This document shows positions 12,086 to 63,874 of a DNA stretch of 64,000 nucleotides, one piece after another. The stretch comes from Mycoplasmatales bacterium (lineage in GTDB: Bacteria > Bacillota_I > Bacilli_A > Mycoplasmatales > JABAAY01), in the NCBI GenBank assembly GCA_014238225.1, contig JABABL010000001.1, positions 15,915-79,914 of the forward strand, in the 5' to 3' direction. Every line of letters begins with the position of its first letter. Position 1 is the stretch's first letter. The notes beneath the pieces are model-generated. The model was given only the letters and a program-made list of their open reading frames with translations. It was not told the DNA's origin and did not search any database. The position numbers and the translations under genes were made by a program.

Positions 12086-12707
12086 ATTGTTTTATAAGTT
12101 GATTAAAAAGTGTAATTTCTGAAGCAACACTCTCTAAAAACACGCTTAATATTTTCTGTTGAGTTTTTCAGTCAGATTTTAAAAACATAATATCTGCAAA
12201 TGCTACATTATCAACATTCATCTTTTTTGCAACAAAAGAAACATTGTAATTATAAATAAGACCGAGAAAAGTAGATGTTTTATTTTTGTTTTGACTCATT
12301 GAAGAAAATATTTCGAAATATCCTAACAGAGATGGCAAGAAAGCAAAACGACTTACCGCATAATTATTTTTCATGGTAACTGTTTTCACACACTTTGCAT
12401 ATTGCCTTGTTGTTTTTTCTATTTTTGATGTTTCCTGATTTTCGGATTTTTTTCACTGATTACGATACTCCATAAAACTAAGCGCTCATTCCAAAATTCT
12501 TATTTTATGTTTTTCTTTGATTTCTGTTTTAAATCCCAAAATTATCGATGGTAAACACTGTTCTATGAAATATAAACGTTGATTGTTTCAAAAAGACAGT
12601 AGTTCAGGACACAATTGATTTTCACTTATTATTTGAATTCAAGGGTGATAAATGTAGTTATTTCATTTCCCAGGGTATTGTGTTTTAAATTGTTTTAAAA
12701 ATGTCAT
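12057..12707 (-). CDS. TenA-like protein lacking the active-site Cys
   Basis: A 216-residue all-helical protein. Its place in the operon, its length and the motif G-Y-F-E-I-F (TenA: G-Y-x-E-I-G) identify it as a second TenA/THI-4 paralogue. The Cys that begins the active-site motif in classical TenA (C-x-x-x-Y-x-E-I) is replaced, reading L-P-S-L-L-G-Y-F-E-I. A C-terminal Glu remains (A-S-E-I-T-L-F-N-Q). Cys-less TenA_E proteins in other organisms act on amino- or formylamino-HMP to salvage pyrimidine. Whether this copy does so, or is a non-catalytic partner, cannot be told. It starts on the last base of the tenA stop and overlaps thiM. Confidence 0.65.
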
Positions 12708-13348
12708 TATTCTATTCCTTGATTGAAAAAGTTAATTTCGCACTCCAAACCTTTTTTGTAAGCATCTTCTGCCGTTATTTTCTGATCAGGTGATAACAAT
12801 TCATACTGTTCATTTAATCTAGTTATTCAGTTTTGTGAATTTGCTTGAAATTGAGAAGAACTGTATAATTTTTTTCACGTAGCAAGATATGTTGATTTTT
12901 TAGGTCTTAAATTTACAAATTTAAGACCTATTTCTGCATAGGATACAGGGCAAGCACCAAAAGCAAAAAGACATACGGAATAGTTATATTTTTGTAAAGA
13001 ATTCTCCAAAAAAGTTAAATACTTTTTTGTACTAACGGACGTCACGTCATTAAAATCACTTTGACTAAAAACTTCATTTCTTTCCTCTTCTTTAATTTCA
13101 TAAAAAAATGAAATCATTTCTTCTAAAAGACTTTTCTGTAATTTGCGTTCTGTCGTCTTACAAATTAAATCCATGAACAAGGAGTTATATTTATTCAAAA
13201 ACAAATCATCTTGTTCTAAATAAACTTGATATTTTTTCGGATCGAGAGTATCGTTAATTAATGAATTAATAAATGGATGTTCCACATATCCTTTGACAAT
13301 TGATTTGTTATTTTCAAGGAAGTTTGTATAGAAACTCATGTTTTCCAT
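12707..13348 (-). CDS. tenA: Thiaminase II/aminopyrimidine hydrolase TenA
   Basis: A 213-residue TenA family protein, the usual length. The start Y-V-E-H-P-F-I-N-S-L is the typical substrate-pocket helix. F-G-A-C-P-V-S-Y-A-E-I-G carries the catalytic Cys and the Tyr/Glu of the active site, and E-I-N-F-F-N-Q near the C-terminus supplies the conserved Glu. TenA hydrolyses degraded thiamine or aminopyrimidine to HMP for reuse. It sits 10 bp after thiD2-thiE and overlaps the second TenA-like gene by one base. It therefore belongs to a salvage rather than de novo pathway; no thiC or thiG is seen. Confidence 0.88.
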
Positions 13349-13358
13349 TTTAACTTAT

Positions 13359-14381
13359 TTAAGTTAGAGAGTTTACAATTTTTCTTTTTCTTTCACCAAT
13401 ATCTTGGGCATCAACAAAGATGTCTATTCCGCTAAAAACTTTAAAATCAGGACATAATTTTTTAATTTCTTTTATCCGGGGAATTGTAAAACCACCTATT
13501 AAGAAAACAGGAATAAGAGGATTATATTTATTGAAAAGACGTGCAGCACTTTCTACACCCATTACCTTCGCATCTGGTTTATTTTTGGTTTGTCAAACAG
13601 CACCTATACCAATGTAATCAGGCTTTAAAGAAATTGCTGCAATTACTTCGCGTTCATCAGAGCAACTAATACCAATTATAGGGAACACTCCCCTAAGGGA
13701 AGACCACTGATGAATGTTTTTCTTGAGATCTTCTTGTCCAAGGTGTAATCCGATAGACTTTGTTTTTCATGCCAATTGAATATCATCGTTAATTATTAAT
13801 AGAACTTCTTTCCTTTTATAAAAATCTTTAATTAAAGAAACATCGGCTTCCTTTTCTTTTAAAGAACCCTTCTTGTTTCGGTATTGCACTAATTTATAAT
13901 GATGATGACCTAACTTTTTAGCATTTTGGCAATAGTTGGAGCTTAAGATAGGATACAGTTCATTGCGCAAATACCGAAGATAGTAGTTTTTTGAAAACTC
14001 ATTTTCACTTTCGTAACTTTTGTAACGGCACTTTCTAAAAAAAGAAATAGAGTCACTTTTTGCTTCTAAGCGAGAATATTCCTCCAAGTTTCTTATTGCC
14101 TCACCAGCCCTTTTAAAATTTGCCATCAATAAACTGTAAAGGGTCTTGTGTGCAGAGTATGTTTGATTATACTCTTCGTCTTTTGAAATATTTCTAGAGT
14201 TTAATAAACTAGCATCTAACTCATTCAAATGTTCACGTATAGAATGGCGAATACGAGATATTTTTTTTGCCAAATCATCTCAATTTTGAACTCTTGCGAA
14301 ATCTTCAACAACTCTAAGGCCTTCACATGCTCGATTTACATTCATGTCTATAATTTGAAGTATCTTATCTTTGTTTTCCAT
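13359..14381 (-). CDS. thiE: ThiD2-ThiE fusion (HMP-P kinase/thiamine phosphate synthase)
   Basis: A 340-residue two-domain protein. Residues about 1-115 contain paired N-R-A-C-E-G-L-R-V-V-E-D-F-A-R and N-F-K-R-A-G-E-A-I-R-N-L-E-E-Y motifs, the mark of the ThiD2 domain found fused to ThiE in several phyla and described as a monofunctional HMP-phosphate kinase. Residues about 130-340 are ThiE: the S-I-G-L-H-L-G-Q-E-D-L and G-I-S-C-S-D segments, D-Y-I-G-I-G-A-V, and late F-L-I-G-G-F-T. The enzyme couples HMP-PP with THZ-P to give thiamine phosphate. It is the first gene of the operon; TATAAT ends 6 nt before its ATG, leaving no space for a TPP riboswitch. Confidence 0.85.
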
Positions 14382-26165: not shown

Positions 26166-27089
26166 TTAAGGGGCGGAAAGAGATCAAGAAGAAGAAATTA
26201 GTACATCGGTTGAAGAATCTTGGAAAGCTAAATTAGATATATAAATGGGCTCAAACGTCTGTTGTGAACTACCACTCGCGATCTCATAATCCATAAAAAC
26301 TCCTGTAGTCAATTCACCAGAAACGACTACTGTTCCTATCCTGATATAAAAACCCAGTGGTTCGCTCTCTTGCGCAACAATTTCCACCGATTGATTCAGA
26401 AAGCTTACTCTGGAAATGTTTGTAGCAGGACCGTCTGGAAAGATATTCGAAGATAAAGCTTGAGTTAGTAAAGCAGTACCTACAGTTGCGTAGTTTGTAT
26501 TGGGGGGTGTTATAGCAACATTAAAATTACTCAAATAACTAAAAGCAAAGAACAATAAGCTTTGTCTCGTTGAACCTGTTCTGTTTCTGTTAGGAAAAGA
26601 AGATCAAGTTCCTGAATACAGTACATTTGTAGATGTGTCGAAAAATATGCCAGAAATAATATATTGAGCAGCAGAACTTTGAATCACGAAATTGGAGACT
26701 GTTGAACTCGAAAATAGACTTATAGTAACAGGAGAATTAATAGTTATTACAAAAAAATTATCATCAAAGGAAATACTTGTTTGACTATTGTCAAAACTAA
26801 TTGTTCGAATGAAAGACGGACTATCAATTGTTCCAAGTCCTGCGACACTTCTTGATAAGAGGTTAATTAAGTTTTCTGCTGATAATTGAGCAACAGTTCC
26901 ATCCGCAAAAGGAGTTTGAGAAGAGTCATAATTTGATAACAAAGCAACGCTTGAAGTCAATATCTGTTCTCTTTCTTCTGAAAACTGGTTTTCTGTTTCT
27001 GGATTGCACTGTTGAGCTACCGCAGCAACTCCTATAACTGAAACAGGCAATGCACTTGCCAGTATTTTTATTGACTTATTTTTTCGCAT
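26166..27089 (-). CDS. Surface lipoprotein with two repeat-family modules
   Basis: A 307-residue predicted lipoprotein: MRKNKSIK, hydrophobic segment, lipobox A-V-A-Q-Q-C at residue 28. Two halves (about 40-165 and 168-300) each follow the module plan of the 1019-residue lipoprotein: an amphipathic helix, Ser/Asn-rich linker, I-x-x-I-S-F strand, then alternating beta pattern. TGA-Trp at 26604 and 26184 join the pieces. The ATG at 27089 is preferred over 27101 because the other family members start M-K/R-basic; it overlaps the upstream membrane-protein gene by 14 nt, so the two are probably cotranscribed. Confidence 0.75.
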
Positions 27090-27321: not shown

Positions 27322-27362
27322 TTGTAAGTTAATTTTAAATTAAAATTATGAATTTAAATTTA

Positions 27363-27368
27363 TATAAT
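27363..27368 (+). promoter_or_regulatory. -10 box for sufS, predicted leaderless
   Basis: TATAAT ending 6 nt before the ATG at 27375. It supports that ATG over the in-frame ATG at 27348, which would place the promoter inside the gene. Confidence 0.55.
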
Positions 27369-27374
27369 TTACTT

Positions 27375-28601
27375 ATGCTAAACGACAAATTGAGAAATGA
27401 CTTTCCTCAACTGAAAATAAAAAACAACAATCATAACCTAGTCTATTTAGATAGTGCTGCAACCACTCTAAAACCACAAAAAATAATTAATTCCATTACA
27501 GAGTACTACGAAAAATTCTCTTGTAGCACAGGAAGAGGAAACTACTTTTTGAGTTCTCAACTTGAATCAAGAGTAAGTGAATCCACAAAAAGCATTGCAA
27601 AGTTTTTAAACTGCGACGAAGAAGAAATAGTTTTTTCTTACAATACAACATACTTAATCAATATTATTAGTAAAATTTTATCTGCCAATGTTAAAGAAAA
27701 CGACGAAATAATACTTAGCCACGCAGAACACTCTTCTAATCTTTTACCCTGATACATGATTGCAAAGGCAAAAAAATTGAAGATAAAGTTCTGTCCTTTT
27801 AACGAAGACTTGACAATTGGTGTCAGAGAAATTAAATCCGTTATTTCTCCCAAAACAAAAATTGTATCTCTTGCCCACATGACCAATGTTCTTGGCAACA
27901 CTATCGATGTTAATGGAATTGGCAAGTTCTTAAAAGAAAGAAATATTTACTTTGTTGTTGATGGAGCACAATCAATCTCTTATTATCCTGTGGATATAAA
28001 AAAAATACAATGTGATTTTTATGTTTTTTCTGCCCATAAGATGTGCGGACCAACAGGTTTGGGAATTATGTATGGCAGGAGGGAAATTTTAGAAAAGAGT
28101 GAAGCAGTTATAGCGGGCGGACACATGCTTAAGTCATTAACAACCGACGGAAGTCATGATTTTACAGTTCTTTCAAGCAAAAGAAAGTGACAACCAGGCA
28201 CCTCCAATTATGCGGCTATTTTTGCTATGAAAGAAGTCATTAATTATCTTCAAGAAATAGGAGTAGACAATATTAGAAAACACTGTATTGAGTTGAAGAA
28301 ATATCTTGTTTCAGAATTCAAAAAACTTCCAAATATTGTAATGTATAATGAAAAACTTGAATCATCTATTCTGACATTCAATGTAAAAAACTGTTCTGCA
28401 GAAGATGTGAGTTTTGATTTATCTAGTAAAGGAATTTGCGTGAGACACGGAGATCATTGTTCAAAAATACTAAAAAACGTCATCAAGACGCAAGCGTCGT
28501 TAAGAATTTCATTTTATCTGTACAACCGCAAAGAAGAAATTGATTACTTAGTAAAACAAATTAAAGAAGGAAAAGATTTTTTGAATCATTTATTTGAATA
28601 A
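27375..28601 (+). CDS. sufS: Cysteine desulfurase SufS
   Basis: A 408-residue PLP enzyme that takes sulfur from cysteine for Fe-S cluster assembly. L-R-N-D-F-P-Q-L and V-Y-L-D-S-A-A-T-T begin it as in SufS. H-A-E-H-S-S-N near residue 115, V-D-G-A-Q-S-I near 200 and S-A-H-K-M-C-G-P-T-G near 222 (PLP lysine) follow. R-H-G-D-H-C-S near 365 has the persulfide Cys. The start at 27375 fits the family and the promoter. It overlaps sufU by one base. In mollicutes SufS/SufU may serve tRNA thiolation as well as clusters; sufB downstream argues for clusters here. Confidence 0.93.
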
Positions 28602-29035
28602 TGAGTTTATTCCACGATCCAGAACTTTTAAAACAAATTATAATCGATCATTATCGTAATCCACAGCACCAAGGGTTAACTAAGGGCAAAGATTATTCCT
28701 GTATTGACTCTAATGTAGAAACTTGCCTCGATGATTTTAAAATTGAGATGTTGATAAAAAACAATTCGGTGGAAGATGCAAATTTTGAAGGGGTGGGATG
28801 TGCCGTTTCCACTGCTGCAATAGACATCCTCATCTCATTGATTAAGCACCAGAAATTAGAAGAAGCGATAACAATTTTATCCGAATACTTTAAAGTCATA
28901 GAAGGAATTCAATACAACGAAAACATGATGAAAGAAGCAAACGCTTTTAAAACAATTTACCAACACGCAAACAGGATTAACTGTGCTAAAATGCCCGCCA
29001 TAAGCTTACTAAGGCTAATAAAAGAAAAATTCTAA
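28601..29035 (+). CDS. sufU: SufU, zinc-dependent sulfur transfer protein
   Basis: A 144-residue IscU-like protein. D-P-E-L-L-K-Q-I-I-I-D-H-Y-R-N-P-Q-H-x-G is the typical SufU start. The three Cys ligands are in E-T-C-L-D-D (usually N-P-x-C-G-D), G-V-G-C-A-V-S-T-A-A and R-I-N-C-A-K-M. SufU accepts persulfide sulfur from SufS through its zinc site. The CGD motif changed to CLD keeps both ligands. It starts on the last base of the sufS stop codon. Confidence 0.92.
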   Translation: MSLFHDPELLKQIIIDHYRNPQHQGLTKGKDYSCIDSNVETCLDDFKIEMLIKNNSVEDANFEGVGCAVSTAAIDILISLIKHQKLEEAITILSEYFKVIEGIQYNENMMKEANAFKTIYQHANRINCAKMPAISLLRLIKEKF

Positions 29036-29075
29036 ATAATTTTTAATATAGTTTATTATATATTTGTAAATAGTA

Positions 29076-30485
29076 ATGAGTAAAACAACTGATTTTATAA
29101 AAAACCAAAAATATAATTATGGATTCAACGATGGGGAAATGGCGCTTATCAAAAGCGAACCCGGTCTTAATGAACAAGTTGTTAGGTTTATTAGTAAGCA
29201 AAAAAATGAACCAGAGTGAATGACTAATTTTAGATTAAAGTCACTGAAGCATTTTTTTAACAGACCAAACCCTTCATGAGGGCCAGATTTAGACAGAATT
29301 CTTCCTGATTTTAACAAGTTTACTTATTTCGCTAAATCTTCTGAAAAACAGGAAACAAAATGAAAAGATGTTCCGGTAAAAATAAAAAACACTTTCCAAA
29401 GACTTGGTATTCCTGAGGCAGAACAAAAATTTCTTGCGGGTGTAAGCACACAATACGATAGTGAAGTTGTTTATCATAACATGCTGAAAGAAACAAGAGA
29501 CAAAGGTGTTATTTTTACCGATACTGATACCGCACTAAAGGAATATCCCGAACTTTTCAAAAAATATTTTAATACTGTTGTTCCCTATAACAATAATAAG
29601 TATTCCGCACTTAATGGGGCAGTCTGAAGTGGGGGATCATTTATATATGTTCCTAAGGGAGTTGTTCTTGATAAACCACTACAAGCTTATTTTAGAATGA
29701 ATGCAGTATCTTTTGGACAGTTCGAAAGAACCCTAATTATTGTTGATGAAGGTGCACAGGCTGACTATGTTGAAGGGTGCACCGCACCTATTTATCAAAA
29801 AGACTCAATCCACGCTGCTGTTGTGGAAATTTTTGTTCATAAAAATGCTCAAATGAGATACACGACAATTCAAAATTGAAGTAACAACGTTATTAATTTA
29901 GTTACCAAAAGAGCACACGTTTGTGAAAATTCTTACATGGAGTGAATTGATGGAAACATAGGGTCAAAAATAAACATGAAATATCCTTGTTGTGTTTTAG
30001 CTGGAAAAAACGCAAGTGGAAAAACAATTTCTATTGCTGTCGCTAGTAAAGGAATGACTCAGGATTCAGGTGCAAAAATGATTCATTTGGCTCCTAATAC
30101 AAACAGCCAAATAATAAGTAAGTCTATTGCACACACCGGTGGGAAAACAGACTACAGAGGAATGATACTAATTTCTGACAAAGCAACCAATGCAATAAGT
30201 AAAGTTGAGTGTGACACATTGCTGCTTGATGATGAAAGCACTTCAGATACAATGCCTACCAACATTAACAACTCTAGTTCAAGCACAATCGAACACGAGG
30301 CATCCATAAGCAAATTGAGTGAAAAACAACTTTTTTATCTGATGTCTCGCGGACTTTCAGAAGCAGAGGCTACTCAACTTATAGTAATGGGTTTTATTGA
30401 ACCTTTTACGAAGGAATTGCCTATGGAGTATGCAGCAGAATTAAATCAATTACTAAAATTAGAAATGGAAAATTCAATTGGTTAA
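29076..30485 (+). CDS. sufB: Fe-S cluster scaffold SufB
   Basis: A 469-residue SufB, normal length. [38 protein letters not shown] and I-E-H-E-A-S near residue 407 are the conserved SufB beta-helix segments. The core Cys is in V-E-G-C. SufB builds clusters with SufC (ATPase) and usually SufD. Neither sufC nor sufD is in this window, although Firmicute operons run sufC-sufD-sufS-sufU-sufB. It is 40 bp after sufU. Its end overlaps the next gene by 8 nt. Confidence 0.95.
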
Positions 30486-36808: not shown

Positions 36809-37042
36809 ATGAATAATTGAAAGAACAATAAATTTAAACACAAAAATAATAGAAACAAAAAAAAGTTTAACCGACATGGACAGAATAGAAAAATTGTATT
36901 TGAAAGCGACATTAAAAGAAATTTTCAGTATATTCTATTGCCTGCAGAACAAAAAGAAATTAAAAAACTCAGAGAGGTTTTTTTAAAAACAAACTGTGAA
37001 CCCATTGAAACAGAAAATAACGAGAAGGAAATAAAAGCATAA
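36809..37042 (+). CDS. Small basic hypothetical protein
   Basis: A 77-residue protein starting M-N-N-W (Trp by TGA). The first half is Lys/Asn/Arg-rich, the second half is a charged helix ending K-E-I-K-A. It is unlikely to be chance: the stop TAA overlaps the accB ATG (TAATG), the same coupling seen at other junctions of the operon, and only this frame is open across the gap. No family recognised. Confidence 0.45.
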
Positions 37043-37467
37043 TGAAAAACTTTGACGACAAAATTAGTATGATTATCCAACAATTACAGAGGAATAAGTT
37101 AGGCAGCATTAGATATAAATCAGGAGATGAAGAAATTGAAATAACACAATCTTCTATGCAAATGTCAAATCTCATAAATCCAAACAACAATACACAAAAT
37201 TTTCCTAATCCACCGGAATCACAACTTGAAACAGGACAGTACGTTAAGTCACCTATTATTGGTACATTTTATGGAAGACCAGCTCCTGATAAACCTCCAT
37301 ATGTGAAAAAAGGTGAAACTATTAAGAAAGGACATATTGTTTGCATCATAGAATCTATGAAAATAATGCATGAAATTTCATCGCCTTATGACGGTAAAAT
37401 CATTGATGTATATCCAGTTGATGGATTATTAGTTGAATTTGATGCAAATCTTTTTAAAATAGAATAG
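37042..37467 (+). CDS. accB: Biotin carboxyl carrier protein of acetyl-CoA carboxylase
   Basis: A 141-residue BCCP. The C-terminal biotinyl domain has E-S-M-K-I-M with biotin-accepting Lys107 (the usual motif is E-A-M-K-M). The middle is a Pro/Asn-rich linker (residues about 45-65), and V-K-S-P-I-I-G-T-F-Y begins the domain. It shuttles CO2 between AccC and AccAD. Biotin ligase must be encoded elsewhere. It starts on the stop of the small basic gene and accC follows after 2 nt. Confidence 0.95.
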   Translation: MKNFDDKISMIIQQLQRNKLGSIRYKSGDEEIEITQSSMQMSNLINPNNNTQNFPNPPESQLETGQYVKSPIIGTFYGRPAPDKPPYVKKGETIKKGHIVCIIESMKIMHEISSPYDGKIIDVYPVDGLLVEFDANLFKIE

Positions 37468-37469
37468 TA

Positions 37470-38822
37470 ATGTTTGCAAGAGTATTAATAGCAAATCGGG
37501 GCGAAATTGCCGTACGAATCATTAGAGCATGCCACAATTTAGGAATAAAAACTATTGCAGTATATTCAATAGCTGATCAAGATTCTTTATTCACGAGATT
37601 AGCCGACGAAAAATATTGTATCGGAGGAACATCACCAAAGGAATCCTATTTAAACAAGAAATTAATAGTAGAATTGGCTGTAAAAATAAGAGCACACGCA
37701 ATTCATCCCGGATATGGTTTTTTAAGCGAAGACTCTGAATTTGCAAAACTGTGTGAAAAGGAAAAGATTATATTTATTGGTCCTAGTGCTCACTCAATTG
37801 CTTTAATGGGGAATAAAAGTGTCGCAATCACACAAGCAGCCGAATGCGGGATGCCCGTATTACCAGGAAGTAAAGGAATTGTAAAGAGTCATCATGAGGC
37901 AATAGAATTCGCGAGAAAAATTGGCTTTCCTGTTTTAATTAAGGCTACAGCAGGTGGTGGAGGAAAAGGAATGAGAGTTGTACAAAAAGAAGAGAACTTT
38001 ATTGCTTCATTGCAAAGTGCTCAACTAGAGGCTAAAAATGCCTTCGCTAATGGGGATGTATATTTAGAAAAATTTCTAATCCAACCAAAACACATAGAGG
38101 TACAAGTTATTGCGGATAAATATGGCAATGCTATTACGATTTCTGATCGCGATTGTTCCATACAAAGAAACTCACAAAAAGTTATAGAAGAGGGACCTGC
38201 TTGTTCGGTTGTAGCGTCTGTACGTAAGAAAATGGGCGAAGCCGCTTTAAGACTTGTAAAGTATGTTAAATATGTAAACGCTGGAACAGTTGAATTTCTT
38301 GTAGACAAGAAAGACAAATTTTATTTTATGGAAATGAACACCAGAATACAAGTGGAACATCCTGTAACTGAAATGATTTCAAACGTTAATTTAGTTGAAG
38401 AACAAATTAGAATTGCCTTCAGCAACAAACTATCTTTTAAACAAAGTTCAGTAAATCCACGAGGACACGCAATAGAAGTAAGAGTTAATGCTGAAAAACC
38501 AAAACTCAATTTTATGCCTTCGCCAGGAAAAATAGAGAAATTACACTTACCAGGAGGGCCCGATGTTAGATGTGACTTTGGATTCGAAGCAGGTGATGAA
38601 ATTCAGCCTTTTTATGATTCTTTAATCGGTAAAATCATTGTGTGGGGAAAAACAAGAACAATGGCAATTAATAGATTAAAAACAGCTATTGAAGAATTTT
38701 TTATTGAAGGGATTGACACCAATATAGAATTTATATATAATATTATTGATAGTCAAGAATTTTCTAGCAATAAGTACTACACTTCTTATGTTTCTGAAAA
38801 TTTTAAAAAACTTATAGAATAA
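37470..38822 (+). CDS. accC: Biotin carboxylase subunit of acetyl-CoA carboxylase
   Basis: A 450-residue ATP-grasp enzyme, the standard length. L-I-A-N-R-G-E-I-A-V-R-I-I-R-A begins it. A-G-G-G-G-K-G-M-R is the glycine-rich ATP loop, followed by F-M-E-M-N-T-R-I-Q-V-E-H-P-V-T-E with catalytic Glu, Asn and Arg. It carboxylates biotin on AccB using bicarbonate and ATP. It overlaps accD by one base. It contains no TGA codon, so it appears as one intact ORF in any code. Confidence 0.97.
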   Translation: MFARVLIANRGEIAVRIIRACHNLGIKTIAVYSIADQDSLFTRLADEKYCIGGTSPKESYLNKKLIVELAVKIRAHAIHPGYGFLSEDSEFAKLCEKEKIIFIGPSAHSIALMGNKSVAITQAAECGMPVLPGSKGIVKSHHEAIEFARKIGFPVLIKATAGGGGKGMRVVQKEENFIASLQSAQLEAKNAFANGDVYLEKFLIQPKHIEVQVIADKYGNAITISDRDCSIQRNSQKVIEEGPACSVVASVRKKMGEAALRLVKYVKYVNAGTVEFLVDKKDKFYFMEMNTRIQVEHPVTEMISNVNLVEEQIRIAFSNKLSFKQSSVNPRGHAIEVRVNAEKPKLNFMPSPGKIEKLHLPGGPDVRCDFGFEAGDEIQPFYDSLIGKIIVWGKTRTMAINRLKTAIEEFFIEGIDTNIEFIYNIIDSQEFSSNKYYTSYVSENFKKLIE

Positions 38823-39670
38823 TGAACACAAACAATCTACGACAAAAAAAATACTCTAGACGACTAGGGATAACACTCAAAGAGAAAGAAAATCTTGATG
38901 CCTCAAATAAACTAGTTCACGAATGCAATGTTTGCAAAAACACAATATTGGAGAGTGCCTACATTAAGCAAAAATACATATGCGGAATATGCGGATTAAT
39001 GGAAAGAGCATCTGCAAAAAAAAGAATTGGATTTGTTGTAGATTCTTTTGAAGAATTTAATAAAAGTATAGAGAGTGGGAATCCTCTTGACATCAAGGAG
39101 TATTCAAAAAAAATTGAAGTCGCTAGAAAATTAAATCACAATGCCAAAAGTGCGGTTATTACCGGATATGCTCGTATTTCGAAGGAGAATTTCGTTCTTA
39201 TTGTTATGAACTCAAAATTTATGATGGGTTCAATGGGTTCAGTTGTTGGTCAAAAAATAAGTAAAGCTTTCCGCATGGCTACAAAAAAACAACTACCCGT
39301 TGTTCTTTTTGCGGCTAGTGGTGGCGCACGAATGCAAGAAGGAGTATATTCATTAATGCAGATGGTTAAAACCTCATGTGCAGTTGAACAACATTCACAG
39401 AAAGGTTTGTTGTATTTGAGTATTTTAACTGATCCCACAACTGGTGGTGTATCTGCTTCTTTTGCTATGCTTGCGGATATAATAGTTGCCGAACCCAAAG
39501 CATTAATATGTTTTGCGGGCCCAAGAGTCATAGAACAAACCATAAGAAAAAAATTACCAAAAGGATTCCAAAGAAGCGAGTGACTTTTAGAAAGAGGGTT
39601 TTTAGACGATATCGTTCCTAGAGTGAAATTAAAAAAATATATTCACAAAATGATATATCTACACGCTTAA
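38822..39670 (+). CDS. accD: Acetyl-CoA carboxyltransferase subunit beta
   Basis: A 282-residue AccD. The N-terminal zinc ribbon is C-N-V-C...C-G-I-C (residues about 39-60). The carboxyltransferase core has M-G-S-M-G-S-V-V-G and A-A-S-G-G-A-R-M-Q-E-G-V, then L-T-D-P-T-T-G-G-V-S-A-S-F-A, the crotonase-fold oxyanion segment. A-G-P-R-V-I-E-Q-T follows. With AccA it moves CO2 from biotin to acetyl-CoA to form malonyl-CoA. One TGA-Trp (39583) lies near the end. accA starts 1 nt after the stop. Confidence 0.96.
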
Positions 39671-39671
39671 T

Positions 39672-40478
39672 ATGAAGAACACATGTAAGACACCTTTTCA
39701 AAAAGTGCAAATGTCCAGAGACATAAATAGAAAAAAACCGAAAGACTTTGTTGAAGAAATATTTAAACATTACACACAACTTCACGGAGATCGTGCTACT
39801 GGAGATGACAAAACCATAAGTGGGGGAATTGGTTTATTAGATAATAAACCTGTTACTGTTATTTTTCAAAACAGAGGAAAAAATTTAAAAGAAAATCTAC
39901 TATACAACTATGGAATGGCAAGTCCATCAGGTTATAGAAAAGCCATGAGGTTAATGAAACAAGCAGAAAAATTTCAAAGACCGATTATTTGTTTTGTTGA
40001 TACTCCAGGCGCAGCTTGCGACATGGAGTCGGAAAACTTTGGTCAAGCCAGTGTGATTGCTAACAGTATTAGAACAATGATTACATTGTCCGTTCCAACA
40101 ATAACAATTATTACTTCTGAAGGAGGGAGCGGGGGAGCGTTGGGATTGTCTAGTTCAGACAAGCTATTTATGTTGGAAAATGCTGTATTCTCTGTAATCT
40201 CACCGGAAGGATATTCCGCTATAGTTTGGAAGGACTCATCAAAGGCCAATTTAGCAGCAAACGAGTTAAAGCTAACCGCTCAAGATTTGTATGAACGAGA
40301 ATTGATTGATGGAATTATTTCGGAAATGGGCGATGGATTAGAAGCAAACTTTTCAGGTGTTTGCGAAAACATTAAAAAAACATTAGTCTCAAACATAAGA
40401 GAACTTTCTAAATTAGATAAAAGTAAATTATTGAAAAATCGCTATAAAAAGTATTATTCCTTTGGAGAGTATTTGTAG
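39672..40478 (+). CDS. accA: Acetyl-CoA carboxyltransferase subunit alpha
   Basis: A 268-residue AccA, shorter than the E. coli protein (319) mainly at the N-terminus, as in Firmicutes. H-G-D-R-A-T-G-D-D, F-V-D-T-P-G-A-A-C-D-M-E-S-E-N-F-G-Q-A and I-T-S-E-G-G-S-G-G-A-L are the conserved segments; the P-G-A-Y-P loop is changed to P-G-A-A-C-D. It completes the four-subunit carboxylase encoded here in the order B-C-D-A. Its stop TAG overlaps the GTG of fabH. Confidence 0.96.
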   Translation: MKNTCKTPFQKVQMSRDINRKKPKDFVEEIFKHYTQLHGDRATGDDKTISGGIGLLDNKPVTVIFQNRGKNLKENLLYNYGMASPSGYRKAMRLMKQAEKFQRPIICFVDTPGAACDMESENFGQASVIANSIRTMITLSVPTITIITSEGGSGGALGLSSSDKLFMLENAVFSVISPEGYSAIVWKDSSKANLAANELKLTAQDLYERELIDGIISEMGDGLEANFSGVCENIKKTLVSNIRELSKLDKSKLLKNRYKKYYSFGEYL

Positions 40479-41401
40479 TGAAAATCATCGGAAGTGGAAC
40501 ATATATTGGTGGCAAGAAAGTTTCGAACAATGATTTATCCCAAACGTTAGATACAACAGATGAATGAATCTATTCACGAACAGGAATTAAAAATCGCTTT
40601 TTTTCTAATATAAATATCGATGAAATGGCAACAATTGCAGCAAGAAATGCCATAAAGGACGCTGGTATTGATAAAAATGCAATTAGTTATATAATTGTTA
40701 CAACAATAACTGCTGATAGCACTATGCCTTCAATAGCATGTAAAGTGCAAAAGTCACTGCAAATTATAAATCAATGTATGTCACTAGATTTAATCGCTGC
40801 CTGCACAGGGTTTATATACGGAATGGATGTTCTTGTTTCGCTTTTAGAAAAACACAATAAAAAAATAGGACTTATTATTAGTGTAGAAAAAATGAGTGAT
40901 GTTTTGAATTTTAAAGACAGAAATACAGCTGTCTTGTTCGGAGATGGTGCAGCCGCAGTGGTAGTTGAAAACATTGGGAATAATGTTGGTGAAATATTTA
41001 ACTTTGCCGAAGGAGATGATAGTAATTCTTTAAATCTTGCTACTTCTGGGGATTCCTTTGTAACGATGAAAGGGAGAGATATTTATAAATTTGCTATTAA
41101 AACCATTAAAAACAATGTTCTACAAGCTTTGGAAGCAGAAAATATTTCTTTAGAAGAAATAGACTATTTTCTTTTACATCAGGCTAATTCTAGAATGAAT
41201 AATTTGGCATTATCTTCACTAGGAGTACCAATAGAAAAAATCATCTCAAATTTAGAGACAATTGCCAACACCTCGTCTGCATCTATTCCGCTACTTATTC
41301 AACATATGAAAGAAAACGGTTTATGAACGAGTGGAAAAAAAATACTGTTTATTGGGTTTGGGGGAGGATTAACATGAGGAAGGTTTATTTATACAATTTA
41401 G
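40478..41401 (+). CDS. fabH: 3-oxoacyl-ACP synthase III (FabH)
   Basis: A 307-residue KAS III that starts chains by joining acetyl-CoA to malonyl-ACP. The catalytic Cys109 is in I-A-A-C-T-G-F, His in L-L-H-Q-A-N and Asn in A-N-T-S-S-A-S-I-P. D-E-W-I-Y-S-R-T-G-I near residue 30 is the FabH N-terminal signature. GTG is the start codon (TAGTG junction with accA), and TGA-Trp codons lie at 40565 and near the C-terminus. fabD starts 1 nt after the stop. Confidence 0.96.
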
Positions 41402-41402
41402 C

Positions 41403-42323
41403 ATGAAAATAGGTATTTTTGGAGGACAAGGAACAGAGTATCAAAATATGGGAATGGACTTTATTGAAAAATTTCCACTGGCAAGAGATATTTTTACGAA
41501 AACAGAAAAAATATTGAGTGATTATTTTTCTTTAAAAAACATTCTACAAGATAGCGGGAGCAAAATTCATGAAACACAGTATGCACAACCACTAATTGTG
41601 ATGTTTAATTACATTATTTCTTCTTGCCTTGAAAAATACGACAACATAGTTTTTAATGAAGTTTTCGGTCTTTCTCTTGGCGAATATAGCTCCTTGATAA
41701 ACGCACAAGTTATTAAATACGAAGAATGTTTGCGATTGGTGGCAATCAGAGGAAGATTAATGCAAGACGCTTGTGAAGAACAACCCTCTGTGCTCGCTGC
41801 AATTTTAATAAACGAGATAAGTGCAATAGACAGTTTGATCAATCAGGGATTTAGGACTAAAATCTTCAAAGCAAATTTTAATTCAAATAATCAAATTGTT
41901 GTCGGCGGTTCTACTAAAGATATAGATGATTTTCTGATTTTTTTAAAAGCTCAAAAAATCAGAGGAATAAAACTGAAGGTTTCCGGAGCATTTCACACTG
42001 TATTTATGAAAAGTGCGGAGCAAAAGTTTATCCAATATTTGAAAAATGTTGAATGAAAAAAACCAATTAAAAGGGTACTGTCTAATTTAACAGGAAATTA
42101 TTACAATTCTGATTTTAGTTATAGTGATGTTCTTTCTAAACAAATAACACACCCAGTCCTACTAACAAAAATAATATCTAAAATTTGTGATTCTAAAAAT
42201 GAATACTACGAAATAGGTCCCAAAAAAATAATTAGTAAATTGTTGGTAGCCAATTGCAAATCAAGTGAAAAATACACAACTTACATAGGAACAGTAAAAG
42301 ACATAGGAGAAAGAAATGGATAA
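41403..42323 (+). CDS. fabD: Malonyl-CoA:ACP transacylase FabD
   Basis: A 306-residue transacylase that loads malonyl onto ACP. G-I-F-G-G-Q-G-T-E near the start corresponds to F-P-G-Q-G. The nucleophile is Ser91 in G-L-S-L-G-E-Y, where the usual motif is G-H-S-x-G: the His before Ser is Leu. The partner His is in S-G-A-F-H-T. The distal Q-I-T-H-P-V and E-I-G-P-K-K segments fit FabD. Activity is likely retained since Ser and the second His remain. It overlaps fabG by 8 nt. Confidence 0.92.
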
Positions 42324-43065
42324 AAAAAGTATTTTGATAACAGGAGCAACAGGAGATATCGGAAGAGAAATATCTTTTAATTTAGCAGAGGAAGGGTACA
42401 TAATTATCGTTAACTATCCGATGCCGTCGCTTAAAGAAAATGCTGATGAGCTTATAAAGGAATTGAGTCAAAAATTTCCCAATAGCCACTATGCAGTTGA
42501 AGCAGATGTTACATCTGAAGAAGATGTAGCAAACCTTTTCAATGTTATTGGAGAAAAAGACCACCAACTGTATGGTGTTATAAATAATGCAGGTATTACA
42601 AAAGATAAGTTATTAATGCGCATGTCCTTAGAGGATTTCCAACAAGTTATAAATGTTAACTTAACAGGGGCATTCATTGTTTGTAAATATGCAGTTAAAA
42701 CACTGGCAAAGCATCGTGACGGAGTAATTATTAATTTATCTTCTGTTGTGGGGCTTGCAGGAAACGCAGGACAAATTAATTACTCTTCTTCCAAAGCTGG
42801 ACTATTAGGGTTAACAAAGTCCCTTGCATTAGAGTATGCAAGCAGAAATATACGAGTTAACGCTATTGCACCAGGGTTTATAAAAACCAAGATGAGTGCG
42901 AAAATTCCTGAAAATATAGCTGCCAAAATTATTGATGCTATACCATTGAAAAAATACGGAACACCTAAAGATGTTGCTGGAGTGGCAAATTTTTTAGTAA
43001 GTGAAAAGGCTAATTATATTACAGGCACTACCATAGTTGTTGACGGAGGGTTAACTAGAAAATAA
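42316..43065 (+). CDS. fabG: 3-oxoacyl-ACP reductase FabG
   Basis: A 249-residue short-chain dehydrogenase. T-G-A-T-G-D-I-G-R binds NADPH, N-N-A-G-I-T is the structural motif, and the catalytic set is Ser143, Tyr156 and Lys160 (Y-S-S-S-K). Length and the C-terminal I-T-G-T-T-I-V-V-D-G-G are typical FabG. It reduces 3-oxoacyl-ACP in each round. Start overlaps fabD; its stop overlaps the fabF start (TAATG). Confidence 0.97.
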   Translation: MDKKSILITGATGDIGREISFNLAEEGYIIIVNYPMPSLKENADELIKELSQKFPNSHYAVEADVTSEEDVANLFNVIGEKDHQLYGVINNAGITKDKLLMRMSLEDFQQVINVNLTGAFIVCKYAVKTLAKHRDGVIINLSSVVGLAGNAGQINYSSSKAGLLGLTKSLALEYASRNIRVNAIAPGFIKTKMSAKIPENIAAKIIDAIPLKKYGTPKDVAGVANFLVSEKANYITGTTIVVDGGLTRK

Positions 43066-44315
43066 TGAAAAAGGGTAGAAGAGTAGTTATTACAGGAATG
43101 GGTGCCGTAACGGCAGTAGGCAACAATGTTAAGGAATTTTGAAAAAATATTCTGGAAGGAAAAAACGGAATTGACTACATTACAAAATTTAATCCGGAGT
43201 TTTCAAAAGTAAAAATTGCTGCTGAAGTTAAAAATTTCAATTATGATTCCTACAGTATAGATGCAATTAGAAAAAACCGTGTCGATTTATTTTCACAGTA
43301 TTCTTTAGTCGCTTCAAAAGAAGCGTTAAAGGAGGCAAATTTTAACTGACAAAGTAACGACAGTGATCCTTTTAGAAGAGGAGTATTGATAGGAAGCGGC
43401 ATTGGAGGATTAACGGTTATTCAGAGTGCTGCGCAGGACGGAAGGCATTTAGGACACAACACCGTGAAAATGCAACCACTTTTTATTCCCAAGGTTATTT
43501 CTAATATGGGAGCTGCCAATGTTTCTATAGCGTTTAACTTTAAAGGGCACGTTGTTTCACCAATTAGTGCCTGCAGCTCAGGAAGCCACGCGATAGGTGA
43601 TGCATACAGACTAATAAAAGATGACTATTTAGATGTAGCGATAGCCGGTGGTACGGAGTCCAGTGTTATTGACTTTGGAATTTGTTCTTTTTCTGCATTA
43701 ACAGCACTTAATAGTTCTAATGACATCAACCGGTCATCAATTCCTTTTGATAAAGAGCGTAAGGGCTTTGTAATGGGAGAGGGAGCTGGAGTTTTAATGA
43801 TGGAAGACCTGGAGTCTGCTCAAAGGAGAAATGCAACAATTCTTGGAGAAATAGTTGGATACGAGTCATTTAGTGATGCACACCACATTACCGCTCCCAC
43901 AGGAGAGGGAATTATTCATGCAATGAATAGTTTATTTTTGAATTATAATTTACAAAAACACGAAGTTGGACATATTAATGCACACGGTACAAGCACAATT
44001 CTGAATGATAAAACAGAAACTGAAGCCATTAAATCAACATTTAATGAACATGCTTATAAAATATCAATTTCTGGAATAAAGTCCATGATTGGTCATTGCC
44101 TTGGAGCAGCAGGCGGTATAGAAGCAATAGCAACAGTGTTAGCGTTAAGAGATCAGGTTGCCCCACCAACAATTAATTATAGGGTTAAGGATCCAGAATT
44201 GGACTTAGACTATACCACCAATGAAAAGAAAGCATTAAATACAAAGTATGCAATTAGCAACTCATTAGCCTTTGGTGGCCATAGCGTTTCCTTATTATTC
44301 AAGAAATGAGACTAA
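43065..44315 (+). CDS. fabF: 3-oxoacyl-ACP synthase II (FabF)
   Basis: A 416-residue condensing enzyme. R-R-V-V-I-T-G-M-G-A-V-T begins it. The nucleophile Cys170 is in S-A-C-S-S-G-S-H-A, and the two His are in N-A-H-G-T-S-T and I-G-H-C-L-G-A-A-G. N-S-L-A-F-G-G-H near the end is the FabF C-terminal signature. It elongates acyl-ACP with malonyl-ACP. The last TGA (44307) is Trp, so the protein ends at TAA 44313, directly before fabZ. Confidence 0.97.
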
Positions 44316-44741
44316 ATGAAAAAAATTTTAAAAGAAGATATTAAAAAAATAATCCCACATCGTGAACCGTTTCTTTTAATAGATGAAATAACAGAAATTA
44401 CGGAAACCACGTGTAACGGGCTTAAATACGTGGGAAAAGATGACTTTTGAGTTCCGGGACACTTTCCAGAAAAACCCATAATGCCAGGGGTCTTACAAAT
44501 TGAAGCACTTGCACAGGTTGGGGCGTATGCTGTTCTTTCTAAACCACAGTTTCTTGGTAAAATAGCTTACTTTGCCGGCATAAACAATGTTAGGTTTAAA
44601 AAAATGATTGTTCCAGGGGATGTTTTAGAATTAAAAGTGGAATTAACAAAAATCAAATCTATTGTAGGTATTGCAAGCGGAAAGGCATATGTTAATGGTG
44701 AAATGGCTATGAGTTGCGAACTTACTTTTATCATTAAGTAA
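44316..44741 (+). CDS. fabZ: 3-hydroxyacyl-ACP dehydratase FabZ
   Basis: A 141-residue hotdog-fold dehydratase. I-P-H-R-E-P-F-L-L-I-D near residue 13 is the family start. The catalytic His49 is in P-G-H-F-P, and Glu63 is in V-L-Q-I-E-A-L-A-Q. It removes water from 3-hydroxyacyl-ACP before FabV reduction. It starts immediately after the fabF stop. TGA-Trp at residue 45 follows the family (F-W/F-x-G-H-F-P). Confidence 0.96.
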
Positions 44742-59000: not shown

Positions 59001-59660
59001 ATGAACAAAACTATCATTGCACTAAGCATTCTAAATGTAAATATTTTTGAATTAGATTCCGTTTTAAAAAAAGCCAAGAAGGCTAAAATTGACTGACTTC
59101 ACTTTGATATGATGGATGGTTATTTTGTAAAGAACTTTAGTTTTAGTTTGAATATGATGAAACAAATCAAGGAAAAATATGATATTTTTACTGATACTCA
59201 TTTAATGATAACTAACCCTGAACACCATGCAGTGCAATTTGCAAATGCCGGGAGCAATTTGGTTACATTTCACTTTGAAGCGTGCACTTATTCAGAGATT
59301 ACACATTTGTTAAACGAGTATTCTTATACAAAAAAAAGAATAGGAATTGTTCTAAATATAAACACTAAGATTTCACAAATATATGAATATTTACCAAGAT
59401 TGGATGTTGTTGTTCTTATGGGAGTGGAGCCAGGTAAAGGCGGCCAAAAATTCAATGAAAAAGTATTGAACAAAATAGTAAAGTTAAAGGAATATATTCA
59501 AAAAAACAATTTAAAAACGTTAATAGAGATAGACGGAGGCATTAAAATAAAAGAAGCTAAACTTTGTAGAGAAGCAGGCGCTGATATTTTAGTTGCAGGA
59601 ACTTTTTTAACCAAATCTGACAATTTCTCTTCTGATCTTCTTAAATTGAAGGGTCAGTAA
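59001..59660 (+). CDS. rpe: Ribulose-phosphate 3-epimerase
   Basis: A 219-residue TIM-barrel epimerase of the pentose phosphate pathway. A-L-S-I-L start, H-F-D-M-M-D-G-Y-F-V near residue 36 (metal His, Asp), D-T-H-L-M-I, M-G-V-E-P-G-K-G-G-Q-K-F and E-I-D-G-G-I are the conserved strands. It starts on the base after the rsgA stop and ends 28 bp before a convergent lipoprotein gene. Confidence 0.95.
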
Positions 59661-59688: not shown

Positions 59689-62600
59689 TTAGCCGCCAGC
59701 ACCAGCAAAAAACAAACCACTAATTGTTGAAGCGCTAATAATTTCAAAATTTTCAACAATAATACCGGAAATTACAAAATCTGCAACAGGAGATGTCCCC
59801 GGAGGATCGTTACTAAATAATACAAGCAAACCAGGTGAAGTCGAAAATATTGTCAAAATGAAAGAAGGGGCGGGCAAGGTAATGGTGCTGCCATCTTCCG
59901 TCACTTGAAGAACACCTCTTAAGGTGCGTCCCGCTTCTTGAGAGACACCAAGAGTCACAGAAGAAAGCTCAAAGCCAGAGGTATTTAGACTTTCTGCTGT
60001 CTCAAAAAGCAAATTTTCTAAAACCGGATTAGCGATCTGGTCTTGGGCTCAGTCTACAAAAGCATTGGTTACTACTTCTGCGTTTGTAGGTGTTTGATTA
60101 ATAAAAGAAGTAGTTGATGCAGCCATGATGGAATTTCCTGCAGAATTTAAGGTCGTTGTAATTACGAATGAATTATCAGTATTTTGATAGGTACGCACCC
60201 TTATCCCGTTAGTAGTTATTGTTAAAGAATTCTGAGCAAACGTTATGGAGCTATTGGTGGAGCTCACTGAATCAAAAGGCTCAGAAATTGTGATTGAGTC
60301 AATTAAAGTAATAGAGGAATCAAAATTACGTAGTCTATTAAGCAACACTTGATACAAATTATTTAAAGAACTGTCTTCTGGAATTCCGTTAATTCCATTT
60401 AAAAATACTCCAAAATTTTTATTTACTTCATTCAACGTAGGTAACTGATTTATTTCAGAACTAGATGATGCCTGAGAAATTATATTGCCTTCACCATTAG
60501 ATGTTATATCTAACGTAAAAGTTTGATTGAAATTAGTGTAAATCCTTGAATATTTACTATCGGTAAACACAAACAAGCTATTAACCGCAAAAGACAAAGA
60601 GGTAGGGCTTGCTGTTACAGAGGTCAATGGTAAAGAAATGGAAATTTGCGTGATTGTTGTTATTGTTTCATCAACATCTTTTAATCTGTTCAATATTCCG
60701 TTATACAATGTGCTTTGAGATATGTTACTAGGGGAAGGGATGCCGGTAATGTCAACTAACGAACGACCAGAATTAATAATATTCTCTGTTCTTGTTGGAG
60801 ACGGAATTATGCTAGAAACGGAAGATGACATTGATATTGCTGAACCAGTGTTATCAAGCGTTATATCAATAACAAAGGTATCATCTGAATTTACAAAGGT
60901 GCTCACAATTGGACTATCAGTTGAAACTGACAAAGAGTCCTGTGCAAAAGTAAGTGTTGAGGCTGTGCTACTAACTGATGTTAACGGATTGGAAATGCTT
61001 ATTGATGTTATATTTTGAACTTCGGGAGAAATGAGCTTAATTCTTTCCAAAATTGTAAAGTATAGACGGCTCAATGAAACATTTGTAGGTACATTACTTA
61101 CTCCATCTAGTGCTCTTCCAAAATTTGCTATGATGTCTTCTTCAGAGGGAGTAGACTCTAGTCCTGAAATAACTCCGATGCTTGTGATTACATCATTACT
61201 TATTTCAACATTTGCCATGGTAACAATAGAAAGAGGATTACTAAAACTATTTGAATTTGTTCCCCCAGCAGTTAGTATGGATAATCTGTTTTGCAAGATT
61301 CCGGCAAAATTTCCTGCCCCGTCACTGAATACCGAGTCACTCTCAGCATCTATAATTGTTACTAAACTAATATTGACAATAGAAGTGTCAATCACTTGAG
61401 TAGCGTCTAGCAATGCATCTCACAGCACGGCTTGACTAGATATAAGTGGTCTTTCTGTAGCTCCGTTCAATCCGTTAACGGCATTTAAAATAACTTCATT
61501 ATTTAGTGGTTGAGCCAAGATGCTGTCTGTTGGAGCCGCTATTTGAGGGGTCCCAGTAATTAAACCTGTTGTTATGTCAACATCAATATTGGAAATAGTT
61601 ATTTCTGAGTTCGGGTTTCGATAGTTTTCGAAAGATCCACCGACTGTTTGAAAGGAAATACTTCCAGCAGAAATATAAGCCTCTGTTCCAGATGTGTTTG
61701 TTGTAATGAAAGTATTACTATTGGAAATACTAATATCTACAATTCCTGTTATGCTCCCGTCAACACTTCGCAAAGCTTCCAAAAAAGCATCAAAAAATAA
61801 AGCAGCATTATTGTCAGAAGGAACAGAAGTAACCCCATCCAAACTTCTAACACTGGATAAAATTGTTTGAGTGGAACTATAAACAGGAAGAAGCCCTAAA
61901 ACAGTTGTAGAATCACTAGTTATGATATTAGTTCCGTTTACCACTATTCCCGACATTACAAAATCATCATTGGAATTTTGCAAAACGGAAATTCCTGGAA
62001 TATTAGTAGTCATGGAAATAACCCCTCTTGCAATTGTTATAGATGAAGCGTCTTCTGAAACTTCTATGAAGTTTCGTATTTCAGTATTTGCAACCAACAA
62101 ACTAATGGACAGTAATTGAGCTGAAGAAAAGCTTTCATCAAAGCTCTGTATTTGTCTAACAAGCGGAGCTAATAATTGTAATTCATTCAAATCAATTGGT
62201 GGAGAAGCAGAATCATATTGAGTTATTAAGTTAATCAAAGTTTCTTCTAAAAGTTCGCTAGCTGTTACTTGCGGCTCAAAAACATTTCTAGTAATTGTAA
62301 TATCTCTAATCTGATTATTGACAACCAGTATTTGTGTAATAATCAAACTTTCTGCATTGGTGTACGTTTGAAAAGAACCACCGATTGTTTCAACAGTAAT
62401 AGAATTAGCAGTCACCGTAACAAAATTTTCTAGACTATTTGTAACAATTGAAGTTTCCGGATTTGAAATATCAATAGAGGTTATATCACTAACTGTGCTT
62501 CCGTTTAAAGCAAAAGATCTTATAATTTCATTTAGCACAACCCCTGCATTAGTGGATGATTGAGGAAGAATAGAAAGAGAATTTAGATCAAGCAAAGCTA

Positions 62601-62748
62601 AACGCACAGCAGCTACCCGACTGTTTTCACCGGGTTCAGGTACAACATTAGTAGTGTTCCCGCAAGCTTGCGCCACAACAGAAATTCCAATTCCCCCTGC
62701 AACAGCAGCAGCAAGTAAACTAGAAATTTTTCTTTTTTTACTACTCAT
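59689..62748 (-). CDS. Large surface lipoprotein of eight ~115-residue repeats
   Basis: One 1019-residue gene; standard-code stops at 61420 and 60049 are TGA-Trp in the same frame. MSSKKRK, hydrophobic segment and lipobox V-V-A-Q-A-C29 begin it. Eight modules follow, beginning near residues 45, 165, 291, 421, 535, 655, 775 and 892. Each has a short helix, S-L-x-x-L-Y-x-x-x-L-x-R-L, then I-T-S-I-S-I-S-x-P, T-F-A-x-N-S-L-x-x-x-T and T-F-V-I-x-I-T-L. Modules 5-7 are the most alike. The protein is very rich in Ser, Thr, Asn and Ile and has one Cys. A repeated surface adhesin or variable antigen is the natural guess. TATAAT ends 6 nt before the ATG. Confidence 0.85.
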
Positions 62749-62754
62749 ACTTAA

Positions 62755-62760
62755 ATTATA
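62755..62760 (-). promoter_or_regulatory. -10 box for large repeat lipoprotein, predicted leaderless
   Basis: Minus-strand TATAAT ending 6 nt before the ATG at 62748. Confidence 0.55.
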
Positions 62761-62890: not shown

Positions 62891-63874
62891 TTACAATGCA
62901 TTTTTTATTTTTTCCAGTGTTTTGAATTTAACAGTTTTATGGGCAAGTTTTAATGCGTTAACCATGGCTTTACAGTCTGTTGAACCATGTGCCTTTACAA
63001 CAACACCATTCAAACCCAGAACCAATGCCCCGCCTACTTCTCTATAGTCTAGTTTTTTTCTAATTTTTCTAAAAATATTAAACGATAATAAAGCAGCAGT
63101 AATTCCCAATGGGGATTTCAAAAGGCTTTCCTTCAAAACTTTAGAAATACTTTTTGCTGTTCCTTCTATTGCTTTCAAAAGTATATTTCCGGTAAACCCA
63201 TCACAAAGAACAACGTCTATTTCTCCGCCCAGCACTGTTCTAGCCTCGACATTTCCTACAAAGTTTTCTATTTTACTTTTCAAATAATCATGGTATTCAA
63301 TATATTTCTTTGTGCCCTTGCCTGGCTCAGTTCCAATATTCAATAATCCAATTTTTGGGCTTGGCTTATTTAAAACAAGTTTAGAAAAAACACTACCAAG
63401 AACGGATCATTGTCTTAACACCTCGCTATTGACTTCCAAAAAAGCCCCTCCGTCCAATAGACAAAAAGGTTGATTTGTGATAGTTGGTATAATAGGCATG
63501 AAAACAGGTCTTATTACATTTCTCATTGTTTTCAAAGTCAGTGTTGCACCACCTACAAAAGCCCCACTATTACCAGCACTAATAACAGCATCAGCGGTTT
63601 TGTTTTTTACGAGATTAACAGCCACTTGCATGGAATTGTTTTTTTTTCTGAAAAAAGCCAAATGAGAGTCATTACTATCTAAGTATTCCGAAGCCGAAAT
63701 AAATTCACCATTGAATTCTAGATTTTTTAAATCTTGATACTCGCTGACTTTTTCCTTGCTTCCCACAATGTATAAATAAACATCTTTATTGTTTTTACTA
63801 AATTTTTTAGCAGCTTTGATCAAGGGACCTGGGCCAAGGTCTCCGCCCATTAAGTCCATCACTATCTTTATCAT
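62891..63874 (-). CDS. plsX: Phosphate acyltransferase PlsX
   Basis: A 327-residue PlsX, which converts acyl-ACP to acyl-phosphate for PlsY. I-V-M-D-L-M-G-G-D-L-G-P start, V-I-S-A-G-N-S-G-A-F-V-G-G-A, L-L-N-I-G-T-E-P-G-K-G and V-L-C-D-G-F-T-G-N-I-L-L-K are the conserved segments. The usual L-D-x-G-A-N is L-D-G-G-A-F. It links the Fab pathway of this window to membrane lipid. A TGA-Trp at 63407 joins both halves. A TATAAT lies 8 nt before the ATG at 63874. Confidence 0.95.

What the first reader, a model, noticed from the sequence alone, without database searches (positions are those of the whole stretch)
59689..62748. Novel lipoprotein repeat module shared by at least three proteins
Eight modules of about 115 residues make up this 1019-residue protein, and the same plan is visible once in the 16328 gene and twice in the 26166 gene. 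I know no named domain with this pattern (helix, S/N-rich linker, I-T-x-I-S-I-S strand, F-A-x-N-S-L, Y/F-x-N-x-x-x-F-x-I). Copy numbers of 1, 2 and 8 suggest growth by duplication, a likely basis for surface variation.
Basis: partly seen in the sequence, partly recalled or inferred. Interest (0 to 1): 0.8.

Follow-up and report, generated by a model that had tools for sequence, protein, structure and literature searches.

The report
Modular surface lipoprotein family, genus-restricted
A wall-less (mycoplasma-like) bacterium makes at least a dozen membrane-anchored surface proteins built from one to eight copies of a ~117-residue module, confidently predicted to fold but matching no database family and found only in this genus, so it is a new lineage-specific building block of the bacterial surface.

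Summary
The repeat is real. The protein at 62748..59689 (- strand, TGA=Trp) is a 1019-aa lipoprotein made of eight ~117-131-aa modules; an HMM trained only on other proteins finds all eight. The gene at 26166 carries two weak but significant copies. The single copy claimed at 16328 is not supported. Pfam, NCBIfam and PHROGs have no match. AlphaFold2 gives a confident helix-helix-beta-meander (pLDDT 95); Foldseek against PDB has no hit with E<0.1 (TM below 0.4). It is not Ig-like. Modules cluster by position across paralogues: the array is old and spread by whole-gene duplication; only modules 5-7 here are a local triplication, already ~50% diverged in DNA. Selection is purifying (dN/dS 0.12-0.3) and no DNA-level repeat or clear phase-variation tract exists, so "surface variation by copy number" is weakly supported. 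Best reading: an expanded, genus-specific family of membrane-anchored modular surface/adhesion proteins; biochemical role unproven.

The parts
59689..62748 (-). 1019-aa modular lipoprotein gene (code 4; two TGA=Trp)
62662..62748 (-). signal peptide and lipobox VAQA|C (Cys29)
   Evidence: sequence; lgt and two lspA genes found in the same genome
62263..62619 (-). module 1
61873..62262 (-). module 2
61510..61872 (-). module 3
61144..61509 (-). module 4
60793..61143 (-). module 5 (local triplet 5-7)
60436..60792 (-). module 6 (local triplet 5-7)
60085..60435 (-). module 7 (local triplet 5-7); structure modelled
59692..60084 (-). module 8, divergent C-terminal module
   Evidence: 17.5 bits with the leave-out HMM
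62755..62760 (-). TATAAT, 6 nt before the ATG (leaderless-like promoter; inference)
26604..26954 (-). divergent module 1 of the 26166 lipoprotein
   Evidence: 12.6 bits, 0 of 500 shuffles; coordinates
26322..26540 (-). divergent module 2 (partial match) of the 26166 lipoprotein
   Evidence: 11.5 bits

Best explanation
The gene encodes a lipid-anchored surface protein: exported, lipidated at Cys29 by Lgt/LspA, and displayed on the outer face of the wall-less cell as a chain of eight small globular alpha-alpha-beta domains. It is one of about a dozen paralogues that share an old, ordered array of the same genus-specific module. The chain most likely acts as a spaced surface stalk or coat that contacts host or neighbouring material (adhesion-type role), and the paralogue set diversifies by whole-gene duplication and divergence under purifying selection. 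Shown: module, family, position-specific paralogy, lipobox and processing enzymes, purifying selection, confident predicted fold. Inferred: outer-surface display, stalk geometry, adhesion.
For: All eight modules found by a HMM that excluded this protein. About 45 copies in the genome. Signal peptide plus lipobox in nearly every member with an intact 5' end, lgt, two lspA. Position-wise clustering m1-m7 across paralogues, with support of 95 or more for several groups. Orthologues in the sister genome at 82% aa identity with dN/dS 0.12-0.15, against 0.02 for groEL. Confident single-module model, pLDDT 95.3, pTM 0.88; the two-module model repeats nearly the same elements twice with pTM 0.62, compatible with separate beads whose relative placement is not fixed. 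One module sits at the N-terminus of a 788-aa lipoprotein whose middle resembles a GH18-type lipoprotein (DFDIEG region, blastp E 0.006), a weak hint of carbohydrate contact.
Against: No direct evidence of surface exposure or binding. No structural relative to transfer a function from. The GH18 resemblance of the 788-aa protein is not seen by Pfam. Two-module geometry is uncertain.
Confidence: 0.55

Rival explanations
1. Antigenic-variation family: module number and gene copies vary between cells or strains through recombination or phase switching, as in Vlp/Vsa/vlhA-type mycoplasma systems.
For: Large paralogue family; a tandem cluster of 80-84% aa-identical genes on short contigs C5 and C10; local triplication of modules 5-7; contigs break inside these genes.
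Against: No tandem or long direct DNA repeats in this gene; modules 5-7 about 50% identical in DNA; dN/dS 0.12-0.3; no shared repeat tract upstream of the genes, only T8 before this one; no strain data.
Confidence: 0.2
2. Substrate-binding or enzyme-accessory lipoproteins: the module is a carbohydrate- or ligand-binding domain whose copies feed transporters or hydrolases.
For: A single module precedes a possible GH18-like region in one lipoprotein; the very weak fold neighbours are NTF2/SnoaL-like pockets.
Against: TM below 0.4 and no hit with E<0.1 to any pocket protein; no conserved polar cluster stands out in the consensus; the window gene lies between rpe and plsX, not beside a transporter.
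Confidence: 0.15
3. Structural or assembly role: the modules polymerise laterally into a surface lattice or shape-supporting coat.
For: Beta-rich repeated domains, large copy number, wall-less cell (inference).
Against: Nothing specific; not tested here.
Confidence: 0.1

Closest known systems
Expanded mollicute surface-lipoprotein families (Vlp of M. hyorhinis, Vsa of M. pulmonis, MBA of Ureaplasma, vlhA of M. gallisepticum; from general knowledge)
   Same: Lipobox anchor, many paralogues in a small genome, repeated units, lineage-restricted.
   Different: Here the unit is a ~117-aa folded domain, not a short low-complexity repeat; copies are highly diverged and position-specific; no DNA repeat or switch tract found.
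Mycoplasma mobile Gli349 and Mvsp proteins (large surface proteins reported with ~100-aa repeats; general knowledge, titles in the reference list of PMC6935860)
   Same: Long surface proteins made of tandem ~100-aa repeats in a mollicute.
   Different: These are lipobox proteins with an alpha-alpha-beta module.
NTF2/SnoaL-like and LDB1 dimerisation folds (best PDB neighbours)
   Same: Helices packed beside a curved antiparallel sheet.
   Different: E 0.1 or worse, TM 0.38 or less; not the same fold by usual criteria.

Membership tests
Bacterial lipoprotein (Lgt/LspA substrate) | N-terminal signal peptide with lipobox Cys | tested here: met
   KKRKISSLLAAAVAGGIGISVVAQA|C; same pattern in paralogues
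Bacterial lipoprotein (Lgt/LspA substrate) | Processing enzymes in the genome | tested here: met
   LGT Pfam E 3e-27; two LspA above cut-off
Bacterial lipoprotein (Lgt/LspA substrate) | Lipid attached and exposed outside | not testable with these tools
   needs labelling experiments
Ig-like repeat or DUF31 surface domain | Pfam profile match | tested here: not met
   no family for the whole protein; 27 modules give only single chance hits
Ig-like repeat or DUF31 surface domain | All-beta sandwich (Ig-like) | tested here: not met
   model starts with two helices, then seven strands
NTF2/SnoaL-like fold | Significant structural similarity (TM about 0.5 or more) | tested here: not met
   best TM 0.38, E 0.1 or worse
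Phase- or size-variable mycoplasma lipoprotein | Near-identical tandem DNA repeats in the gene | tested here: not met
   TRF and direct-repeat search; modules 5-7 50% nt identity
Phase- or size-variable mycoplasma lipoprotein | Homopolymer or short-repeat switch tract at the promoter | tested here: inconclusive
   T8 just upstream of TATAAT here, not shared by paralogues
Phase- or size-variable mycoplasma lipoprotein | Variation within or between strains | not testable with these tools
   single MAG per species; plsX locus not found in the sister MAG

The most novel reading that the evidence does not exclude
The module is a protein fold not yet represented among solved structures, invented within one mollicute genus and expanded into a dominant part of its surface proteome (about 45 copies in a 680-kb genome), with more diverged descendants (such as the 26166 protein) among its other lipoproteins.
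Probability: 0.25. Interest if true: 0.65.

Novelty: new variant of a known kind. Interest (0 to 1): 0.45.

Why it matters
Expanded lipoprotein families are how wall-less bacteria build and diversify their surface, but the units usually have no structural definition. Here one genus shows a compact module with a confident predicted fold, an ordered multi-domain array, gene duplication stages from 1 to 8 modules, and orthologues in a sister species. That makes the origin and spread of a lineage-specific surface domain directly traceable.

Tried and rejected
A link between the 16328 protein and the module (HMM, hhalign and shuffles): rejected. A second, related "type B" domain in other lipoproteins (26166, 16328, C33 and C59 genes): leave-one-out scores are mostly within the null, so not claimed. 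Two weak hits in other genera are judged false: one is an RmuC-like protein, the other could not be reproduced in any ORF. A GH18 assignment for the middle of the 788-aa paralogue is suggestive only. Genome contigs, viral contigs and plasmid searches with this protein found nothing. An attempt to name the organism through FabF failed. Foldseek against viral structures gave nothing. A first two-module alignment was out of register and discarded.

Full report
What is there. Under genetic code 4 the window encodes, on the minus strand at 62748..59689, a 1019-aa protein with a basic N-terminus, hydrophobic segment and lipobox VAQA|C. In-frame TGA codons throughout the window's genes mark a TGA=Trp mollicute (inference from the code); the genome is a MAG of 679,536 bases in 60 contigs, 88% complete. 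The gene lies between rpe (59001-59660, +) and plsX (62891-63874, -) (gene names from reading the translations).

The repeat. Cutting the protein by eye gives eight modules of 117-131 aa. Pairwise local alignments against shuffled sequences give z up to 24 within modules 5-7, 5-14 for many other pairs, and a link from module 8 to module 2 (z 11). The strict test is a HMM trained only on modules of other proteins: it finds all eight (62.8, 34.7, 74.7, 60.0, 46.3, 42.0, 47.6 and 17.5 bits), against a best score of 9.8 in 200 shuffled versions.

The 26166 lipoprotein has two similar halves (z 8.2). hhalign saw no relation to the module, but two of four held-out true modules were also missed, so that test lacks power. 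A full module HMM that never saw this protein gives 12.6 and 11.5 bits; none of 500 shuffles reaches this (max 10.3) and non-member lipoproteins of the same genome reach at most 2.1. I accept it as a divergent two-module member at moderate confidence. The 16328 protein scores at chance and is dropped.

The family outside the window. A profile search of the whole genome found 40 matches; iterated HMMs found 44 copies, and two further genes on contig C59 were found later. Members: C6 1025 aa (7-8 modules), a C5 gene interrupted by an assembly gap (7 modules over both parts) with a tandem second copy cut by the contig end, C10 two partial genes, C44 (cut, at least 4), C33 914 aa beside groEL (6), a C33 gene split by a 1-nt insertion relative to an intact 797-aa orthologue (about 6), C59 425 and 408 aa (2-3 each), C55 788 aa (1), C6 218 aa (1). 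Several contigs end inside these genes, so the true number is uncertain.

Distribution. Single-sequence searches found nothing outside the genome. The profile rang in the only other genome of the genus (seven matches, two genes: orthologues of the groEL-linked and the split gene) and in no other of 320 genomes of the order apart from two weak hits judged false, nor in 395 genomes spread over the class. The family is restricted to this genus as far as these collections show. The plsX neighbour of the window gene was not found in the sister MAG (77% complete), so the presence of this particular paralogue there is unknown.

History. In a tree of 52 modules, copies group mostly by position in the array and not by protein: m1 with m1, m2 with m2, and so on to m7, many with support of 95 or more. 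The ordered array therefore predates these paralogues, which arose by whole-gene duplication. The exception is the window protein, whose modules 5, 6 and 7 all fall with the position-5 modules: a local triplication that stands in place of positions 6-7. These copies are now about 50% identical in DNA, and no tandem or long direct DNA repeat remains. dN/dS is 0.12-0.15 between orthologues and 0.22-0.32 between recent tandem copies (groEL control 0.02): relaxed compared with a housekeeping gene but purifying on average.

Structure. AlphaFold2 on module 7 with 27 module sequences gives pLDDT 95.3 and pTM 0.88: helix 2-11, helix 22-38, then seven strands. Foldseek against PDB has no hit with E below 0.1; the weak top entries are NTF2/SnoaL-like and LDB1 domains with TM of at most 0.38. 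Viral structures: none. Modules 6-7 modelled together repeat nearly the same elements twice, but with pTM 0.62, so the relative placement is not determined. Pfam, NCBIfam and PHROGs have no match beyond single chance hits, and PDB sequences none of note.

Mechanism. Lgt and two LspA genes are present, so lipid anchoring at Cys29 is expected. Without a wall, a chain of eight independent domains would project from the membrane. The most likely role is contact or adhesion as a surface stalk; this step is inference. The 788-aa paralogue, in which one module precedes a region resembling a GH18-type lipoprotein (blastp E 0.006, DFDIEG), hints at carbohydrates but does not show it.

Novelty. The module is undescribed in the libraries searched, and its predicted fold has no close solved relative. 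The kind of system, an expanded lineage-specific lipoprotein family in a mollicute, is known. I rate it a new variant of a known kind, interest 0.45.

Noticed in passing
window 37042-44741: accBCDA-fabH-fabD-fabG-fabF-fabZ cluster in a TGA=Trp mollicute; fatty-acid synthesis is unusual outside Acholeplasma-type mollicutes (general knowledge; gene names from reading the translations).
   Followed up: no
window 62755-62760 and upstream of C5, C10, C44, C55 paralogues and plsX: TATAAT lies only about 6-8 nt before the start codon, suggesting leaderless mRNAs for several lipoprotein genes.
   Followed up: partly
L071:391-2505: 704-aa lipoprotein with a GH18-like domain (DALDFDIEG ... GVTPMIGQND) preceded by two mutually similar N-terminal segments (z 5.6); PF00704 below cut-off.
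   Followed up: partly
L035:1904-2869 and L036:1079-1987: Exported proteins without lipobox, 68% identical to each other, near module lipoprotein genes on two contigs.
   Followed up: no
L038:2623-5017: Module gene split into 209- and 576-aa ORFs by a 1-nt insertion relative to the intact 797-aa orthologue in the sister genome: recent pseudogene or assembly error.
   Followed up: partly
L038:570-2546: 658-aa exported protein with a long GEEPGDGN repeat linker, beside a module gene, with a similar gene beside the orthologue in the sister genome (L067:5223-7253).
   Followed up: no
window 11300-14381 and 27348-30485: ThiM-, TenA- and ThiE-like thiamine genes and Suf genes, from reading the translations; unusual content for a 680-kb mollicute.
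   Followed up: no
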